A stretch of DNA of 23,083 bases from IMG/VR virus record IMGVR_UViG_3300033143_000106, positions 1 through 23,083 of that record; one strand, 5' to 3'. The position numbers and the translations under genes were made by a program. Under the pieces are notes generated by a model that was not told the DNA's origin, searched no databases, and saw only the letters and a list, made by a program, of their open reading frames with translations. This DNA comes from a virus. The first letter of the stretch is position 1, and the number at the start of each line of letters is the position of its first letter. Positions 13,626-22,056 of this stretch are shown one piece after another.

Positions 13626-15122
13626 TTAAGCAGCTGTAAACAATACAAAGTTGTTAGCACCTTGCACACATAGACATCTTTCAGATAGGAAGTTTACTTC
13701 CATCGCGTCAAGATCACTAGTAAATGCGCCACCAACAGAACCAGTCAACCAAGACTTCATACGACGATCGTCAGTTTGTGACGCTCTGTATCGTACGTGT
13801 AAGAATGGACGACGAATGTTAGTACCAAGGATTTGGTCATACACAGTAGAAGTACCAGCTGGAATTAAAACTCCATCAATAGCACTTACACCATAACCAA
13901 CAACTGGTGCAGTTTCAATACCACCTCGTGTTGAAGCATCGTTTAGATATTTCCAGTCAGTTTTGTAGAAGTCATAAGAACCTCTGCGGAAACCGCTAAA
14001 ACCTAAATTCAATGCCATGTCTTCTGAATTTTCAAATATACCAAATGAAGTACCACCAGAATAAGCGGCGTTCACTGCAGCTAGCATATCATCAAAATTC
14101 AATGAAGTCTCACGATTTAAGAAAAGCATATTTTCTTCAATAGCACCTTGCGTATCTAAGTTACGTAAAATACCATCAAATTCAGCTAACGCTTGTGTAG
14201 GGACTTGTCCAGCAGCGGCGTTAAATCCAGCTTCTACATTACCACGAGATTGAATAGCAGCAAATAAACCTTCTGTACCTTTAAATCCAGCGGCTGTAGC
14301 AGCTGAAGGAGTACCTCCACCTGTATCTTCTACAGCTTTTTCACCTTCAACCATAGCCATTTCTAAGTAGTCTTCGAAACGTAGGCGAGTTTCAGATTCA
14401 GCTTTTAGATACCAAAGATATCCACCAGTTCCGTCTTCTGTAGCAACTTCAACCCAACCAATCTGAGCAGTGTCAGAACCAGAAACTACATATTTATTTC
14501 TGATAATAACTGGTGAGTTAGAAAATTGAGTAAAAGAAGGTTCTACACTTACATAACCATCAGCAACTGTAGCTGAAGTGTTATTAGGTGTAGAAGAACC
14601 TTTTGAATATTCAGAACCGTATACAAACATTTTGATATTTGCAGTTGCTCCTGTCGCAATACCACTTGTATCTGCAGCGCTATAAGGAGCTACAGTTACA
14701 TCACCAGTAGTTAGATTAGATGCAGTTACAACACCAGTAAGTTCTTGTCCTGTATCGTCTAATAAAACCACTGTTTGGTTTACTGAAATTACGTTTTTAA
14801 CTTCTGCACTAACTGGAATACCGATAACTCCAGCACCGTCGTTAGTACAACCTTCGTAAGCAATATGCAAACGATTTTGTTCAGACCAAATTACTTGGTC
14901 AGATGTCATTGGCATTTCAGCACCAACCATACGTAAGAAGCCAGAAAGAGTACGATTACCATATCGCTCTACTTCTTGCTCATAAATTTCAGGTAGATAC
15001 TGTTGTGCAAATGTGTCGGAATCGCCAGGATTGTTACCTCCATTAAAAGACAGGAAGTTTGTATCTAGCAATTGTTGTTGTTGACTTGGGATAATACTCC
15101 CAAATAATGGATCAATAGCCAT
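13626..15122 (-). CDS. Major capsid protein (HK97-fold type), 498 aa
   Basis: The protein forms the icosahedral shell. The N-terminal region has ERYGNRTLSGFLRMVGAEMP (52-71) and SDQVIWSEQNRLHIAYE (74-90). This is the pattern I associate with crAss-like major capsid proteins. A beta-rich Thr/Ser/Gly section (~100-200) follows, probably an inserted surface domain or extended loop. Then comes the conserved stretch IIRNKYVVSGSDTAQIGWVE (~205-225), and a helical and beta core reaching the Cys-containing tail LSERCLCVQGANNFVLF. It lies between the acidic scaffold gene and a strong terminator, the classic place for a capsid gene. The length of about 500 residues fits the family. The start ATG has an A/T-only leader and no Shine-Dalgarno sequence. 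I see no protease gene nearby, so maturation may not need cleavage. Confidence 0.92.
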   Translation of the reverse strand: MAIDPLFGSIIPSQQQQLLDTNFLSFNGGNNPGDSDTFAQQYLPEIYEQEVERYGNRTLSGFLRMVGAEMPMTSDQVIWSEQNRLHIAYEGCTNDGAGVIGIPVSAEVKNVISVNQTVVLLDDTGQELTGVVTASNLTTGDVTVAPYSAADTSGIATGATANIKMFVYGSEYSKGSSTPNNTSATVADGYVSVEPSFTQFSNSPVIIRNKYVVSGSDTAQIGWVEVATEDGTGGYLWYLKAESETRLRFEDYLEMAMVEGEKAVEDTGGGTPSAATAAGFKGTEGLFAAIQSRGNVEAGFNAAAGQVPTQALAEFDGILRNLDTQGAIEENMLFLNRETSLNFDDMLAAVNAAYSGGTSFGIFENSEDMALNLGFSGFRRGSYDFYKTDWKYLNDASTRGGIETAPVVGYGVSAIDGVLIPAGTSTVYDQILGTNIRRPFLHVRYRASQTDDRRMKSWLTGSVGGAFTSDLDAMEVNFLSERCLCVQGANNFVLFTAA

Positions 15123-16360: not shown

Positions 16361-18778
16361 TTAACGAGGTTCAAACTGTTCTAGTCCAAATCCTCCAAGC
16401 GCGTCATTACCAGCTGACTCAAAGTTTTTTGGTAATTCGTCATTTTGTCTTTGCGAAATCATTTCAGACTGTTGAGTGCCTATAATTCTAGCACGTTTAT
16501 CTTTACGGTCTTCTATTTCTTTTTCACGAGTAGATTCAGCATCTACTTTAGCTTTCGCTAATTGTAAGTTATAACCAAACTCTTGCTCCATTAACATTTG
16601 TTTTATTTGAGCTTCTCGTTCTAATTTTTGTATTTCAAATTGTGACTTACCTTGTTCTAATTGTAGTTTGCTTTCAGTAAGAGCTTGTTGTTTCTGTACT
16701 TCAGCTAAAGCTGCTTGTTCAGAAGCTTGTGCGTTTGCTTGAGCTTGAGCTTGTATATTTTGTTGCTGAGCTGCAGCGGCAGCTTCAGCACGTTGCTTTT
16801 GTTTTTGTTTGAGGTATTGGTTTGCTAGCTTTATATTTTTAATCTGCCTAATGTCAATAGCATCTTCTAAACCTATTTGACCACCTTGTAAAGCAACTTG
16901 TATATTCTGTTCTAATCTCTGTTGCTCTTCTTCTTCTGGTTCTAGCTCTAAGAAAATACCAAATTCATGCATGTTTAATTTTTCTATCTCTTGTAAAGAA
17001 CCTACATTATATTGATTGATAGAACTTATTAAAGCGTTTTTAGTAAGCGGAAAGCTTAACATATCAGCAGCGCGTAAGCTTATATTTTCTGCAGCTCTAA
17101 TTGTTAAATACATAAGAGACTGTAATATATGCTTGGTAGCTGTATTTGATGCTGCTGCAGCTAATTTTTGTAAACCTACTAACGAGTCTTTGCTAGGTTG
17201 ACTTCCGTCTCTAGCCTCGTTTAATCCTGTCACGTCGCGTATCATTTGTAAATAATATTGATACGTTTGTACTAGTGCACCTATTTTAGCTTGACCATTT
17301 GATGTTTGTAACTCTTGAATAGGTACTTTACCAGGATTTAAATCACCATCTATTGTTTTAGATCTTCCTACAATACTACCAGTTTGAAAGTACATGTTCA
17401 AAGCTTCTTGAGGATTATAATTTGTACCATTTCCTAAATCAACTTCTGATAACCCATCAACGTCTACAAATACTCCATCTGGCACCATCCTAGCTAGAAC
17501 CTGTTGTATCTTTAAATGGGTAAGTTGTATCATGTCAGCAAAACCAATACACTTACTTACAACACTTTCTATTCTGCCTTTATACATCCGTGGAGCAGAT
17601 ATAGCATAATTCATTTCTACTTTAGTTTGATCGCTGTAAGGCCTTGTCATATTATCAGCAAGTTGCCACTTAAGCATTTTTTCTTGACCTAATATTTTGG
17701 CTCCACTATATAAAACCTCTATCGCTCTATGTACTCTTTCAAAGTTATTGTTTTCAGGTGGATTAAAATCACCTGGTTTTTCTAAAGCTTTTTCTAAACC
17801 TTGATCTGTTTGTTTAATTTTAAATACTTGATTATTATACGTTTTGTATTCAAAATATAAAACTTGTATGTTGTTGTAGTTATCATCTTGACCCCAATAA
17901 TTTCTAGTGTAATTAGAATCGCCAGGATATTTTTGTATTTCTTCTAGCTCAGAGTCAGTTAAATACGGAAATTGTTTTTTAACTTCTTCTAAGCTTACAC
18001 TTTTAACTTCTCCAACATAATACACGTCTTCAAAGTTAGGGTCTTCTGTGTAAGAATAAACTAAATTAGCTGGATCTACATAATCTACAGTTACTCCGTT
18101 AGCTAAATTAAAATCTGTTTTAACGCAGCTTATACCTATAGTAACTAAATCATAAGCTAATCTTTTCTTTATTTCATCGTACTTATTGTAGTTAAATACA
18201 TTTTCAATTAATTCTTCTTCAGCTATTTCTATAGACTGCTTGTAGCTTAATTGCATGTATAACTCTAGCTCTTCTTCGTTTTGAGGCAGAGCATCTGGAT
18301 TTACACTTGAATAAAAATTTTGACCCGTAGCTTTATTTAAACTTTCTATTTGTTCTCGACTCTGCATGTCTCTTATAGCATCGAAAACATATCTAGTTCT
18401 TTGCTTTAAAGCAAATGGATCACTAGCGAAAGATTTTATTTCATAACCTTTATCTGTCATGCCATTTACTACAATATCTACAAATTTAGATAATACAGCA
18501 ACTGGTTTCCAGTCTAAGTTTAAATAAGACAAATCACCATTTATTGATAATTCATCTTTATATTTAGCTACAGACTGTTCTCCTCTAGCATAAAGCCTTA
18601 ATCTATGAAAATCTTGCCAGTTATTACCAAAACGACCACCAGCACCTAAGCCACGATCACCTCTAAACCATTCGTTTTCAATAGCTCTACCTACTTGGAA
18701 ACCATAATCCAAAGTATTCTTTTCTGCGTCTGGTACCACCTGACTGGGAAAGGAACTATTTACATTAGTATAAACCAT
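16361..18778 (-). CDS. Portal protein (805 aa)
   Basis: This protein forms the dodecameric ring at the head vertex through which DNA passes. The N-terminal pattern WQDFHRLRLYARGEQSVAKY (54-73), then LSYLNLDWKP, then LSKFVDIVVNGM (96-107), matches what I know of crAss-like portals. A helical section follows (EIAEEELIENVFNYNKYDEI, ~183-202), then a clip/stem-type region with PANLVYSYTEDPNFEDVYYV (~236-255), and helices near 500-560 (e.g. MIRDVTGLNEARDGSQPSKD). From ~656 to 776 lies a Gln/Ala/Glu/Lys-rich coiled coil that likely forms the barrel inside the head. The length fits large podovirus portals. It follows the terminase gene after three bases and is followed by the scaffold gene, the usual terminase-portal-scaffold-capsid order. 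Confidence 0.9.
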   Translation of the reverse strand: MVYTNVNSSFPSQVVPDAEKNTLDYGFQVGRAIENEWFRGDRGLGAGGRFGNNWQDFHRLRLYARGEQSVAKYKDELSINGDLSYLNLDWKPVAVLSKFVDIVVNGMTDKGYEIKSFASDPFALKQRTRYVFDAIRDMQSREQIESLNKATGQNFYSSVNPDALPQNEEELELYMQLSYKQSIEIAEEELIENVFNYNKYDEIKKRLAYDLVTIGISCVKTDFNLANGVTVDYVDPANLVYSYTEDPNFEDVYYVGEVKSVSLEEVKKQFPYLTDSELEEIQKYPGDSNYTRNYWGQDDNYNNIQVLYFEYKTYNNQVFKIKQTDQGLEKALEKPGDFNPPENNNFERVHRAIEVLYSGAKILGQEKMLKWQLADNMTRPYSDQTKVEMNYAISAPRMYKGRIESVVSKCIGFADMIQLTHLKIQQVLARMVPDGVFVDVDGLSEVDLGNGTNYNPQEALNMYFQTGSIVGRSKTIDGDLNPGKVPIQELQTSNGQAKIGALVQTYQYYLQMIRDVTGLNEARDGSQPSKDSLVGLQKLAAAASNTATKHILQSLMYLTIRAAENISLRAADMLSFPLTKNALISSINQYNVGSLQEIEKLNMHEFGIFLELEPEEEEQQRLEQNIQVALQGGQIGLEDAIDIRQIKNIKLANQYLKQKQKQRAEAAAAAQQQNIQAQAQANAQASEQAALAEVQKQQALTESKLQLEQGKSQFEIQKLEREAQIKQMLMEQEFGYNLQLAKAKVDAESTREKEIEDRKDKRARIIGTQQSEMISQRQNDELPKNFESAGNDALGGFGLEQFEPR

Positions 18779-18781
18779 TTA

Positions 18782-21004
18782 TTATATTATTTTTGAAATG
18801 TAACCTGTGTTATCGTATCTTTTAAATGATATGTTAACTGGATCTCGTTGTTGTATGTTTACTGGTGTATATTTATTTTTATTACAAGCCATTATAGCTA
18901 AGCCAGAACTAATTGTTGCGTCAAATTTTGTTCTATTGTTTATATTAAATTTGGCCCAATCTTCTAAAGTTCTTTGAAAATACATGTCACCATAACCATT
19001 TTCATTTAAGCCCACATAATTTTCTATATACGATTCTATAGCAGCGGCGTGAGCTTGCTTAATATCTTCGCTTGAGTTAGGTATACCACCTATTTCTCTT
19101 TCTGCAACCGAAAGTTTATTGTATAATTTATCAGGTCTATTTATAGAGAACTTTCTATAACCTCTACGCTTTAAGTAATACAGTAATCTTGGTTTGTTGT
19201 TCTCTGCTAATATAGGCATACCATAAAAATGTAATGCCATTAAAACATCTTCAAAGAATATTTCAGCCGTTGGAGGTCTTGATATATATTCTAAAAAGAA
19301 CATATTAAATGGAGCTTGCTCCATGCTGAACTTTGTTAAACCGTGTAAAGATCCTTTTGACCCACGCTTGTCTACCGTACCAGATATATCGTAACTATCA
19401 CAGCCGAAAGCTCCTACATGATCATTTCCAGGAAACTTAACTCCATTTTTTATTATCACACGATTTTGTAGATTTATAGATGGAATCCATGAAACTAAAA
19501 ATCTACCGTTATTGTCAGGTACAAAATTTACACTTGTATCTTTTATACCACCAGCCCACTGAAAGTTACCTTGAGTGACTGTTGTTTTGTTTTTCATATC
19601 TTCATTGTGATCTATCTGTTCATAAATCTTAGTTAGATTAAATAAAGATAATTTTGCTTCGTCTCTAAATGCGTGTTTTTCTGTTCGAGGAAACTGACGA
19701 TAGTATTCATTTAAACTGTCCTGATCATTTCTAAGACCATCAACTTCATTTTCCCAATGTTCTATAACACCTGTAGTAATTAAATCGCCTTGCGCATCTT
19801 TAACCGCGTCTTTTGGTGAGTCGAATACAGGTACGCCATAAGAATCAATGAATCCTTCGTAGTTCCATTCCATAGGTATGAACAAACTATATAATCCCGA
19901 GCTAGTCTGTCCATTGCGGTTTCTTTGTGTGACGTCTGACGCATAGTATAATTTTTTAAAGTTATCACCACCTTTGTCTAAAGAGTTACTTGTAGAACCC
20001 ATCATACATTTACCAACAATTTTACTACCTAGTCTCATTGTTGTTTTAGTAACACGCCAGTTGTTTAAAATGTTATCAGGACGCTCCCACTTACCTGATT
20101 CATCATGGGCAAGAAGCTTGAGCTTTTCACCATCATATGAGTTGTCACCCGTGTTTTTCCAATCGATCGTGGTGTCAAGACCTTCAATTTCTTCAGGCGT
20201 TTCACCTTGATCAAGTTTACGCCTTGTAAGTTTAGAAGCTGGTACTCTGTATGCGAGCTCTGTTTTTGGCCTGTCCATACCGTCTTGTATTGGTTTAAAA
20301 AAGAACGGGTAGTTGACAGACATAGGTACGACTTTGTCGGTAAACATTTTCTTAGCATCAGCTCCTGATTTTGAAAGTATGCCAAACCTTGAGTCTGAAG
20401 ATATTGTTGCTTGATGTACAAGTTCTGACGATGCCATAAAGGAGAAACCAGAGCGTCTGTTTTTAAGATAGCACATTCCATAACATCTTTGATCTGCTTT
20501 ACAGGCTTCCCAGAATATAAAGAAAATTCTATTTGATTCTCTATAATCTGCGGCGCCAACGTCAATTTTAGACCACTGCAAGAACATGTAATGAGAGCCA
20601 GTAATATAAGTAGATAAACCTTTGTTTTTAAACCAAAAACCTTCTTCTCTTCTTTTGAACTCTTCATCAATATAATCATACCATTCTTCCTTAAAGTTAA
20701 CTGGATATCTTTCCCAGTCAAATACGCTTTTAATTTTAGACAGTTTTTTTGGGTATTCTGTTTTTACCCAACGCTGATCTTCTGTTTCTTTAGATACAGC
20801 GTAAACGTTTTCAGGAATAGCTGGTAAAGCTATTTTAAGGTTTTGTATTTCAACCACCTCACCTATAGTACCATCTTTACTTATAACTACAACGTCGTTT
20901 TCAACGTCGTAACCATACTCCCACTTTTTATACCTATTGTTTCTTTTTAATAACTTAGGTTTAATGTGGTCTTTTATTGTTTTTATTAAAGACTGCTCGT
21001 ACAT
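18782..21004 (-). CDS. terL: Terminase large subunit (DNA-packaging ATPase/nuclease), 740 aa
   Basis: This is the packaging motor and headful or site-specific nuclease. After a ~110-residue N-terminal extension comes the ATPase domain. Its Walker-A-like loop is CYLKNRRSGFSFMAS (~176-190), a K-x-R-x-G-F-S variant of the classical GKT loop, as in crAss-like and related terminases. Walker B with the catalytic acid is LKLLAHDESGKW (~293-304). The coupling motif is CMMGSTSNS (~332-340). The RNase-H-like nuclease supplies three acidic sites: D in FGCDSYDISG (~536), E in FFEDVLMALHFYG (~585-590) and D in KFDATISSGLAIMA (~690-700). The start ATG shares one base with the preceding gene's stop (TAATG), which implies coupled translation. 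All expected motifs are present, so it appears intact. Confidence 0.93.
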   Translation of the reverse strand: MYEQSLIKTIKDHIKPKLLKRNNRYKKWEYGYDVENDVVVISKDGTIGEVVEIQNLKIALPAIPENVYAVSKETEDQRWVKTEYPKKLSKIKSVFDWERYPVNFKEEWYDYIDEEFKRREEGFWFKNKGLSTYITGSHYMFLQWSKIDVGAADYRESNRIFFIFWEACKADQRCYGMCYLKNRRSGFSFMASSELVHQATISSDSRFGILSKSGADAKKMFTDKVVPMSVNYPFFFKPIQDGMDRPKTELAYRVPASKLTRRKLDQGETPEEIEGLDTTIDWKNTGDNSYDGEKLKLLAHDESGKWERPDNILNNWRVTKTTMRLGSKIVGKCMMGSTSNSLDKGGDNFKKLYYASDVTQRNRNGQTSSGLYSLFIPMEWNYEGFIDSYGVPVFDSPKDAVKDAQGDLITTGVIEHWENEVDGLRNDQDSLNEYYRQFPRTEKHAFRDEAKLSLFNLTKIYEQIDHNEDMKNKTTVTQGNFQWAGGIKDTSVNFVPDNNGRFLVSWIPSINLQNRVIIKNGVKFPGNDHVGAFGCDSYDISGTVDKRGSKGSLHGLTKFSMEQAPFNMFFLEYISRPPTAEIFFEDVLMALHFYGMPILAENNKPRLLYYLKRRGYRKFSINRPDKLYNKLSVAEREIGGIPNSSEDIKQAHAAAIESYIENYVGLNENGYGDMYFQRTLEDWAKFNINNRTKFDATISSGLAIMACNKNKYTPVNIQQRDPVNISFKRYDNTGYISKII

Positions 21005-21279
21005 TATCTTGATCTACCTTCAGCAAAACCTTTAAAACTTTTTTCTTTGGTTTCTCCAGTTTTATCTTCAAGCATTGTTTTTTCTTCTTCTATTCTAGCT
21101 AGTATTTCAAACGCATCGAATATAGCAAGCTTTTTTGTTGCGGCTGCGTTTTTAAGTCTATCTGCAGAAACATCATCTTCTGTGTTGGTGATTATCTTTT
21201 CTTCAGCAACCTTAATTAACTCTTTAACTGCTTTCTGCCCAGCTTGGATTATATTCTTCCTCGTTTCCTTTGAACTCAT
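21004..21279 (-). CDS. Small helical protein before the terminase gene; small terminase subunit candidate (91 aa)
   Basis: Lys/Glu/Ala-rich and helical. Residues 1-30 form one helix (RKNIIQAGQKAVKELIKVAE). DDVSADRLKNAAATKKLAIF and DAFEILARIEEEKTML (about 35-70) form a second helical unit, followed by a Gly/Lys tail. No helix-turn-helix is obvious. It sits directly upstream of the large terminase, and its stop overlaps the terminase start by one base. This is the usual place of the DNA-recognition small terminase subunit. The length is short for that role, so the name is positional only. The only reasonable start, the ATG at 21279, makes its first 56 bases overlap the end of the co-chaperonin gene in another frame. 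Confidence 0.7.
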   Translation of the reverse strand: MSSKETRKNIIQAGQKAVKELIKVAEEKIITNTEDDVSADRLKNAAATKKLAIFDAFEILARIEEEKTMLEDKTGETKEKSFKGFAEGRSR

Positions 21280-21829
21280 ATTTAACTAAAATATCATTTG
21301 ATTGCATACAATATAGTCTTTGTTTATCTACAATAAACTCAAACTCCCTGTTAGATTTAAAACCAACTAAATCACCTTCATGTATACCAAGTGACTCTAG
21401 TGTTTTATTACCTATTTTTACTATACCTTTGTTTTTTTGTTCTGGTTCTTTAGACCACGTATCATTATTTTTTATAGGCATAATAAAACAATGGTTACGA
21501 ACTGGCAACCATTTTACCATACGTTTATAAAGATATATTTGATCGTATTGACAAAGATATTTATTGTCATTAAAAGTTTTACTACTATCAACTTCTTTAC
21601 CTTGATGGTTATAATATCTTCTAAATACATTATGGTGTATAATAACCTTATCACCCTCCTGTATTGGCGTATCAAAAGCTGTTGGCACTGTAAGCACAAT
21701 AGCTGTTCTGTTTATTAACTTAAAGTTTTCTATACTAGAATTAACTATAAGTTTATCGCCATTTATATCAACCTCATTGTTATACCTTTTACCTTCTGGT
21801 ACAACTATAAAATCAAAAACACTTCTCAT
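21224..21829 (-). CDS. Phage co-chaperonin with two GroES-like domains (201 aa)
   Basis: The protein reads as two GroES (Cpn10)-like halves. The second half (~113-185) runs CFIMP, a short loop, KGIVKIG, GIHEGDLVGF, then LYCMQSNDILVKYE. It follows the order of GroES strands, with the typical G-D-x-V-x-F and closing D-I-L-x-x-x-E elements. The first half (~5-103) parallels it: FIVVPEG, a longer loop (about 13-38) that could serve as the mobile loop contacting GroEL, then AIVLTVP, QEGDKVIIHHNVF and YLCQYDQIYLYK. GroES is ~97 residues, so 201 fits a duplication. Phage co-chaperonins such as T4 gp31 work with host GroEL to fold the major capsid protein; the gene lies upstream of packaging and capsid genes. 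Divergence is high, so I rate the fold as likely and the function as inference. Its ATG overlaps the upstream stop (TAATG). Confidence 0.75.
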   Translation of the reverse strand: MRSVFDFIVVPEGKRYNNEVDINGDKLIVNSSIENFKLINRTAIVLTVPTAFDTPIQEGDKVIIHHNVFRRYYNHQGKEVDSSKTFNDNKYLCQYDQIYLYKRMVKWLPVRNHCFIMPIKNNDTWSKEPEQKNKGIVKIGNKTLESLGIHEGDLVGFKSNREFEFIVDKQRLYCMQSNDILVKYEFKGNEEEYNPSWAESS

Positions 21830-22056
21830 TAATATTCTAAATCATATTCAACAGATATAGCCATGTTAGAATTAAATTTCTTCCATGGCAATACCTCATT
21901 GTTTTTCTTTATGAATATGTTATAAGAAGCGTCTTCATCTTCAAACAGAATATGCGATATCTCATGACCACCGTAGACCTGTTGACCTAAAGCGTAGTGC
22001 ATAGCATCATTCTTATAATCAGAACCAATACTGATTTTTCTTATAACAGTACTCAT
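21829..22056 (-). CDS. Small conserved phage protein, function unknown (75 aa)
   Basis: A compact, probably alpha/beta protein: VIRKISIGSDYKNDAMHYAL, GQQVYGGHEISHILFEDE, then NIFIKKNNEVLPWKKFNSNM and a beta end AISVEYDLEY. I recognise the style from small genes near terminases of uncultured marine phages but know no function. No membrane segment, metal site or catalytic motif stands out. Both ends are joined to neighbours by TAATG overlaps (22056-22052 upstream and 21829-21827 downstream). It is therefore probably co-translated with the coiled-coil protein and the co-chaperonin and may act with them. Confidence 0.72.
   Translation of the reverse strand: MSTVIRKISIGSDYKNDAMHYALGQQVYGGHEISHILFEDEDASYNIFIKKNNEVLPWKKFNSNMAISVEYDLEY

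What the first reader, a model, noticed from the sequence alone, without database searches (positions are those of the whole stretch)
21224..21829. Tandem GroES-like co-chaperonin next to the packaging genes
The 201-aa protein appears to be two fused Cpn10-like halves. Each half carries a proline-containing strand start (VVPEG / IMP), an I-V strand, a G-D-x-V element (EGDKVIIHHN / EGDLVGFKSN) and a closing YLC-x-x-x-(x)DI-like strand (YLCQYDQIYLYK / LYCMQSNDILVKYE). Only the first half keeps a long loop that could be the GroEL-contacting mobile loop. A double-domain, asymmetric co-chaperonin would be an unusual geometry: two domains per subunit against a seven-fold GroEL ring. It would suit a phage that must fold large capsid or tail proteins.
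Basis: partly seen in the sequence, partly recalled or inferred. Interest (0 to 1): 0.72.

Follow-up and report, generated by a model that had tools for sequence, protein, structure and literature searches.

The report
Two-barrel viral co-chaperonin beside terminase
Phages of marine and freshwater Bacteroidetes carry, next to their DNA-packaging genes, a protein made of two fused GroES-type barrels, usually in genomes that also hold an ordinary GroES and often a GroEL, a set otherwise described in chloroplasts.

Summary
In detail: window 21224-21829 (minus strand) encodes a 201-aa protein with two Cpn10/GroES barrels. Half 2 is a Cpn10 by sequence (hhalign E 1.3e-9). Half 1 is too divergent for sequence methods, but folded alone its 16 best-placed solved entries are all Cpn10s (Z 8.2 to 5.8). 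The best full-length match is 7ekq_R, a double-length chain of a Chlamydomonas complex whose chain P is Chaperonin 11. The family is not new: it is PHROG 13932 ('co-chaperonin GroES'). What I found nobody describing: (1) the double-barrel layout; (2) a terminase beside the gene in 237 of 237 testable loci and a coupled ~75-aa gene in 253 of 253; (3) of 42 records checked, 35 also carry a separate single-domain GroES and 33 a GroEL; (4) only barrel 1 keeps a mobile-loop-like segment, whereas Callevirus-type and phi18:3 relatives have loops in both barrels, so loop 2 was probably lost. Best reading: a second, Cpn20-like co-chaperonin, perhaps mixed with the phage's single GroES into seven-barrel lids, on phage or host GroEL. 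The main rival is a packaging factor that reuses the fold. Nothing was tested at the bench.

The parts
21224..21829 (-). tandem Cpn10-like protein, 201 aa
   Evidence: phrog_13932 E 6.8e-24 over residues 1-183; AF2 and fold search
21515..21829 (-). barrel 1 (residues 1-105)
   Evidence: AF2 alone pLDDT 87.8; Cpn10 entries fill the first 16 VIA places; sequence-only signal weak
21707..21775 (-). mobile-loop-like segment of barrel 1 (residues 19-41)
   Evidence: position by comparison with single GroES sequences; pLDDT 71 in blocks 21-40 of the full model
21743..21751 (-). hydrophobic tripeptide L-I-V (residues 27-29), candidate GroEL contact
   Evidence: hydrophobic in 87, 85 and 80 of 87 rows; the GroEL contact is inferred
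21629..21637 (-). HHN motif of barrel 1 (residues 65-67)
   Evidence: H65 and N67 invariant in 87 rows, H65, H66 and N67 in 27 rows; phi18:3 has DVN there; not seen by eye in the single GroES rows printed
21224..21514 (-). barrel 2 (residues 106-185) plus C-terminal tail and stop codon
   Evidence: hhalign E 1.3e-9 to single Cpn10s; VIA Z 8.6 to 8wuc_a
21428..21475 (-). shortened loop of barrel 2 (residues 119-134)
   Evidence: 16-18 residues in 84 of 87 rows, 26-27 with a GroES-like loop in 3 of 87
21829..22056 (-). 75-aa gene coupled to the tandem gene (1-nt overlap), no known family
   Evidence: a homologue ends within 60 nt upstream in 253 of 253 testable loci; 1-nt overlap in 64 of the 79 (of 88) representatives where the script found the ORF
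21004..21279 (-). 91-aa gene between the tandem gene and TerL, overlapping the tandem's end by 56 nt
18782..21004 (-). terminase large subunit
   Evidence: phrog_6681 E 4.4e-165; TerL follows in 237 of 237 testable loci
16361..18778 (-). portal protein
   Evidence: PF16510 E 9.7e-10; phrog_6547 E 8.3e-137

Best explanation
A second, double-barrel co-chaperonin of these phages, analogous to chloroplast Cpn20. Shown: two Cpn10 barrels whose predicted arrangement roughly matches a double-length chain of the Chlamydomonas Cpn complex, a loop with a hydrophobic tripeptide at the mobile-loop position of barrel 1, and company with single GroES and usually GroEL in the same genomes. Inferred: several copies join side by side, probably with the phage's single-domain GroES, into rings of seven barrels (for example three tandems plus one single); barrel 1 docks on GroEL by its loop, while barrel 2, whose loop was lost in this lineage, fills ring positions and shapes the lid; the lid closes the phage GroEL, or host GroEL where the phage has none, to fold virion or packaging proteins made from the same gene block (TerL, portal, the 498-aa virion structural protein at 13626-15122).
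For: Fold of both halves; sequence homology of half 2 to Cpn10 (PF00166 rings in 49 of 87 rows at E<=0.1). Single-domain phage GroES matches phrog_3188 in three of three tested and, in one of the three, the second half of phrog_13932. Tripeptide kept in barrel 1. Tandems with loops in both barrels: L294, L296, L297 and phi18:3 (ESGLEL, and SLIYIPEDNKEKTIEGK), the last related to the family at hhalign prob 98.1, E 1.3e-13. Company: of 42 records with the tandem, picked mainly for length (27), 33 have GroEL and 35 a separate single GroES; in the 33 with both, single GroES and GroEL matches lie within about 0.9 kb of each other. The 7 with neither are contigs of 23 to 52.7 kb, the window among them. 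Of those at least 55 kb, 19 of 19 have the single GroES and 18 of 19 GroEL (several are near-duplicates). phi18:3 has tandem and single GroES. The tandem is not among the proteins that the phi18:3 record marks as found by MS/MS, in the stretch read. phi38:1 GroEL was found methylated by mass spectrometry in infected cells and in a free-virion sample (PMC13288928, passages).
Against: The gene sits beside terminase, not beside groEL (the smallest gaps I worked out are about 2.9 kb, in G040 and G043, from the coordinates; not worked out for every record); a single GroES is already present in most records; loop 2 is gone in the window's lineage; barrel 1 is so divergent that profile comparison barely sees it, and it carries an HHN motif not seen in the single GroES rows. 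No complex with GroEL could be modelled. Phages without a GroEL match keep the tandem (phi18:3, G039), which fits use of host GroEL but also fits a GroEL-free role.
Confidence: 0.6

Rival explanations
1. A former co-chaperonin turned packaging or head-assembly factor: the two barrels now act with the coupled 75-aa protein and TerL or portal, not with GroEL.
For: TerL adjacency in 237 of 237 and the 75-aa neighbour in 253 of 253 testable loci, and in 24 of 24 and 29 of 29 in assembly contigs; 1-nt overlap with that gene in 64 of 79 representatives; invariant H65, N67 and E162 and a lost loop 2; a single GroES already present.
Against: Barrel 1 keeps the hydrophobic tripeptide; relatives keep two GroES-like loops; in phi18:3 the tandem stays near TerL but the gene just upstream is unlike the 75-aa gene. 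Gundel, a portal relative, has neither a tandem beside TerL nor any PF00166 match at E<=0.1, so it is not strictly required for such packaging.
Confidence: 0.25
2. A virion structural protein (ring or neck component).
For: Position in the structural block.
Against: In the stretch of phi18:3 read, portal and four other proteins are marked as found by MS/MS and the tandem is not; in the phi38:1 record many neighbours are labelled structural and the tandem is not. Absence of a label is weak evidence.
Confidence: 0.07
3. A lid or cap for another ring machine, for example ClpP, or a decoy that blocks host GroEL.
For: The best structural match, 7ekq_R, comes from an entry titled CrClpP-S2c, whose chain P is Chaperonin 11; that this is a Cpn cap on chloroplast ClpP is recalled, not read here.
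Against: No sequence or context evidence for ClpP was seen; phage GroEL is present in 33 of 42 records.
Confidence: 0.05

Closest known systems
Chloroplast/apicoplast Cpn20 (double-domain co-chaperonin)
   Same: Two Cpn10 domains head to tail in one chain; in chloroplasts it works beside a single-domain Cpn10 and can form seven-domain mixed rings (PMC5780408, PMC3542282, passages).
   Different: Phage protein, only remotely similar in sequence; loop 2 shortened in this lineage; gene beside terminase. Both loops are reported kept in apicomplexan Cpn20 (PMC3542282, passage).
PHROG 13932; tandem 'Cpn10' of Callevirus (phi38:1, Calle)
   Same: Same family by full-length profile match and same gene position. 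A cpn10 is listed among the core genes of Pervagoviridae (PMC8776804, Table 2, passages); the passage does not say which cpn10.
   Different: Callevirus keeps a long loop in barrel 2; the double architecture is not named in the labels or passages seen.
phi18:3 gp096 (Pachyviridae)
   Same: 200-aa tandem with one small gene between it and TerL, single GroES elsewhere, hhalign prob 98.1.
   Different: About 20-23% identity, loops in both barrels, no HHN, no GroEL match, no 75-aa homologue just upstream.
T4 gp31 and single-domain phage GroES
   Same: Cpn10 fold (gp31 1g31_A: Z 6.4 with the full model; Z 6.8 with half 1); phage-coded.
   Different: One domain per chain; in the 33 records with both, the single GroES lies within about 0.9 kb of groEL, the tandem beside terminase.

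Membership tests
Cpn10/GroES (PF00166) | Cpn10 barrel | tested here: met
   Both halves by AF2 and fold search; half 1 at Z 8.2 and less
Cpn10/GroES (PF00166) | Score over the Pfam gathering cut-off | tested here: not met
   Window protein 16.9 bits against 21.1; phi38:1 relative 24.1 bits, over it
Cpn10/GroES (PF00166) | Mobile loop with hydrophobic tripeptide | tested here: met
   Barrel 1 by sequence position; barrel 2 lacks it
Cpn10/GroES (PF00166) | Seven-barrel ring | not testable with these tools
   No oligomer prediction offered; no coordinates laid in the Python box
Cpn10/GroES (PF00166) | Binds GroEL and supports folding | not testable with these tools
   Needs the bench
Cpn20-type double co-chaperonin | Two Cpn10 domains head to tail in one chain | tested here: met
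   7ekq_R Z 10.1 over model 1-185
Cpn20-type double co-chaperonin | Mobile loops kept in both domains | tested here: not met
   Loop 2 16-18 residues in 84 of 87; met in L294, L296, L297 and phi18:3
Cpn20-type double co-chaperonin | Common descent with plastid Cpn20 | not tested
   No tree with plastid sequences; a profile of the family found 7ekq_P only at E 1.3
phrog_13932 | Full-length profile match | tested here: met
   E 6.8e-24, residues 1-183 on 1-198 of 200

The most novel reading that the evidence does not exclude
A viral three-part chaperonin (phage GroEL, single GroES, tandem GroES) whose lid is a mixed seven-barrel ring with loops on only some barrels: three tandems plus one single would give four loops for seven GroEL subunits. 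That would be a half-docked lid, reached independently of chloroplasts.
Probability: 0.25. Interest if true: 0.85.

Novelty: new variant of a known kind. Interest (0 to 1): 0.6.

Why it matters
[quoted passage not shown] the paper itself concerns an apicomplexan one). A widespread phage family with the same layout, two-loop and one-loop forms, cultured representatives (phi38:1, phi18:3, elemo phages, Calle, Panino) and a matched single GroES and often GroEL makes two questions testable: why a cell or virus would want an even-domained lid on a seven-fold ring, and how few loops a lid needs.

Tried and rejected
Half 1 by sequence alone: hhalign prob 14 against 26 Cpn10s and prob 2.6 against half 2, so a recent internal duplication is not supported; the structural test was used instead. 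A guess that the 91-aa gene is a split-off N-terminal part of TerL: hhalign of 68 small against 15 long downstream ORFs gave prob 0.71, not supported; that set of long ORFs was crude and probably included wrong frames. Two family scans from single sequences found little: Panino as query gave no relatives, phi38:1 as query gave 4. The tree (89 rows) puts the four loop-2 rows (L085, L294, L296, L297; L085 and L294 are identical) on one side of a branch (100/97), but its bootstrap had not settled, long branches meet and the root is arbitrary, so loop loss rests on phi18:3 as an outside relative, not on the tree. phmmer against PDB sequences gave designed DPBB proteins at E 1.1e-5, and the A2 profile's best PDB sequence hit was an acyltransferase at E 0.063, ahead of GroES at 0.17; I set both aside as chance or general barrel resemblance. 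Six literature searches aimed at a phage tandem co-chaperonin or its genomes listed no paper that I recognised as describing a two-domain phage GroES; three more were aimed at the Chlamydomonas Clp complex, the elemo phages and C. baltica proteomics. Listings are capped and only open-licence PMC papers are searchable.

TerL was tested in the 237 of 268 loci with at least 1500 nt downstream, the 75-aa gene in the 253 of 268 with more than 300 nt upstream. Loci were capped at 80 per scan, so counts are of what was fetched. The 42 records searched for GroEL and GroES were picked by me, mainly for length. For the Cpn10 profile I used 26 single GroES proteins: 6 of the 22 printed and 20 of the 30 loci (9 ordinary bacterial, 17 phage or phage-like in all). 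Left out: similar rows; and four rows my script parsed badly (L329, L341, L354, L355), two long forms (L340, L344), a tandem fragment (L357), and L350, L352, L358 without a special reason.

Full report
What is there. Window 21224-21829, minus strand, encodes a 201-aa protein. It lies in a block of phage genes read on the minus strand: holin, an 87-aa gene with weak coiled-coil matches, a 75-aa gene, the protein in question, a 91-aa gene, terminase large subunit, portal, then further virion genes. The window is a whole 23-kb virus record. PHROGs names the family 'co-chaperonin GroES' (phrog_13932, E 6.8e-24 over residues 1-183); Pfam Cpn10 sees only the second half, below its cut-off.

Two barrels. 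AlphaFold2 on 87 aligned relatives gives mean pLDDT 85.0 and pTM 0.76. Among solved structures the best full-length match is 7ekq_R, a 194-residue chain of the Chlamydomonas entry CrClpP-S2c (Foldseek E 2.6e-6, TM 0.54-0.55, rmsd 6.7; VIA Z 10.1, rmsd 3.5, 156 aligned, model 1-185 on chain 11-194). Chain P of that entry is named Chaperonin 11; that chains Q and R are the tandem Cpn20/23 is my recall. The other Cpn10 rows of that search align to half 2. Half 1 folded alone (pLDDT 87.8) gives Cpn10, GroES, gp31 or the Chlamydomonas chain in all of the first 16 VIA entries, Z 8.2 to 5.8, with dehydrogenases and reductases, whose domain is GroES-like, below at 5.2 and less. These Z-scores are middling by the tool's own note, and Foldseek alone is weak there (best E 7.3e-3).

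Sequence. Half 2 against 26 single Cpn10s: hhalign prob 96.4, E 1.3e-9; half 1: prob 14, score 22.05, a little above the best of 30 column shuffles, 18.6. At residues 27-29 of barrel 1, where single GroES proteins have the tripeptide of the mobile loop (SGLxL, GGLML), the residues are hydrophobic in 87, 85 and 80 of 87 rows. Barrel 2 has 16-18 residues in the matching place in 84 of 87 rows; three rows (L294, L296, L297) have 26-27 with a GroES-like loop. Cellulophaga phage phi18:3, of another family, has a homologous 200-aa tandem (hhalign prob 98.1, E 1.3e-13; the viral fold library lists a 200-aa phi18:3 protein, which I take to be the same, at E 4.5e-14) with loops in both barrels. Two loops is therefore probably the older state and the window's lineage lost the second. 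Barrel 1 carries an HHN motif (H65 and N67 invariant in 87 rows) which phi18:3 lacks.

Spread and neighbours. GenBank phages: 77 of 50,697 records match (68 Flavobacterium, 7 Cellulophaga, Maribacter Panino, one uncultured). In bacterial and archaeal assemblies there were 31 loci: 30 on contigs of at most 78.9 kb, which may be phage contigs binned into metagenome genomes, and one, L319, on a 1.05-Mb chromosome record of an archaeal MAG. TerL follows in 24 of 24 and the 75-aa gene precedes in 29 of 29 testable ones of these, L319 included, so they look like viral loci. Among the phage and viral loci, TerL lies within 1200 nt downstream in 237 of 237 testable loci and a homologue of the 75-aa gene ends within 60 nt upstream in 253 of 253; the overlap with that gene is exactly 1 nt in 64 of the 79 representatives (of 88) where the ORF was found. 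In phi18:3 one small gene separates the tandem from TerL, and the gene just upstream is not a match to the 75-aa gene.

The other chaperonins. Of 27 tandem-bearing records, 22 have a GroEL over the Pfam cut-off and the same 22 a separate single GroES. Of 15 more, 11 have GroEL and 13 a single GroES. In the 33 with both, the two matches lie within about 0.9 kb of each other. The 7 with neither, the window's record among them, are contigs of 23 to 52.7 kb. Among records of at least 55 kb, 19 of 19 have the single GroES and 18 of 19 GroEL; several of these are near-duplicates, and the 42 were picked by me, mainly for length. phi18:3 and G039 (72.8 kb) have tandem and single GroES but no GroEL match. 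Tenacibaculum phage Gundel, a portal relative, has no Cpn10 match and no tandem before TerL. The phage GroELs diverge from host GroELs around apical helices H and I yet keep the LE pair in 8 of 11 rows and an L-x-x-N stretch in 11 of 11 (the helix assignment is from memory). GroEL in this phage group was reported in 2017 (PMC5332604, passages), and a cpn10 as a core gene of Pervagoviridae in 2021 (PMC8776804, Table 2, passages; which cpn10 is not said there).

How it most likely works. Shown here: fold, loop pattern, neighbours, company. Inferred: the protein is a co-chaperonin that adds two barrels at a time to a seven-barrel lid. The chloroplast case shows that double and single Cpn10 can mix into seven-domain rings and that six or eight covalently linked domains still work (PMC5780408, passages). 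These phages carry the same two kinds of subunit. With loop 2 lost, a mixed lid in this lineage would hold GroEL by fewer than seven loops, which could make release easier or the cage larger; that step is speculation. The gene's place among the virion genes suggests late expression and virion clients; expression was not examined. The main rival, a packaging factor that has left GroEL behind, explains the strict TerL neighbourhood and the coupled 75-aa gene at least as well and is kept at 0.25.

Novelty. The gene family and the label GroES are known. My searches listed no paper that I recognised as describing a double-domain phage GroES or its pairing with a single-domain one. I file it as a new variant of a known kind: Cpn20-like in layout, not shown to share descent with plastid Cpn20.

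Noticed in passing
window 21829-22056 (-): 75-aa protein, just upstream of the tandem gene in 253 of 253 testable loci, conserved pattern RKISiG.DyKn.aMHY...WKkF, no match in Pfam below E 0.02 and none in PHROGs or NCBIfam; a candidate partner.
   Followed up: partly
window 21004-21279 (-): 91-aa gene whose first 56 nt overlap the tandem's conserved C-terminal tail (EYNPSWAxSS); in Elemovirus, Callevirus and Panino TerL is longer (876-879 aa against 740) and follows the tandem directly. A split TerL was not supported.
   Followed up: partly
BFVD A0A516L046: A 304-aa viral protein matches the tandem model at E 1.9e-9; its extra length might hold a third barrel.
   Followed up: no
L319 8001-8555: A tandem (phrog_13932 E 3.9e-26) with TerL and 75-aa neighbours on a 1.05-Mb chromosome record of a Candidatus Aenigmatarchaeota MAG: an inserted virus or an assembly join.
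   Followed up: partly
L359-L369: Phage GroELs diverge strongly from host GroELs in the apical domain, for example where hosts have KAPGFGDRRKAML.
   Followed up: partly
L296 (G039): 72.8-kb phage with tandem and single GroES but no GroEL match, with loops in both barrels.
   Followed up: partly
KC821614 / NC_021796: Structural proteins of phi38:1 are annotated 'by similarity to phi18:1' with the same gene numbers as phi38:1 itself, which looks like a labelling slip.
   Followed up: no
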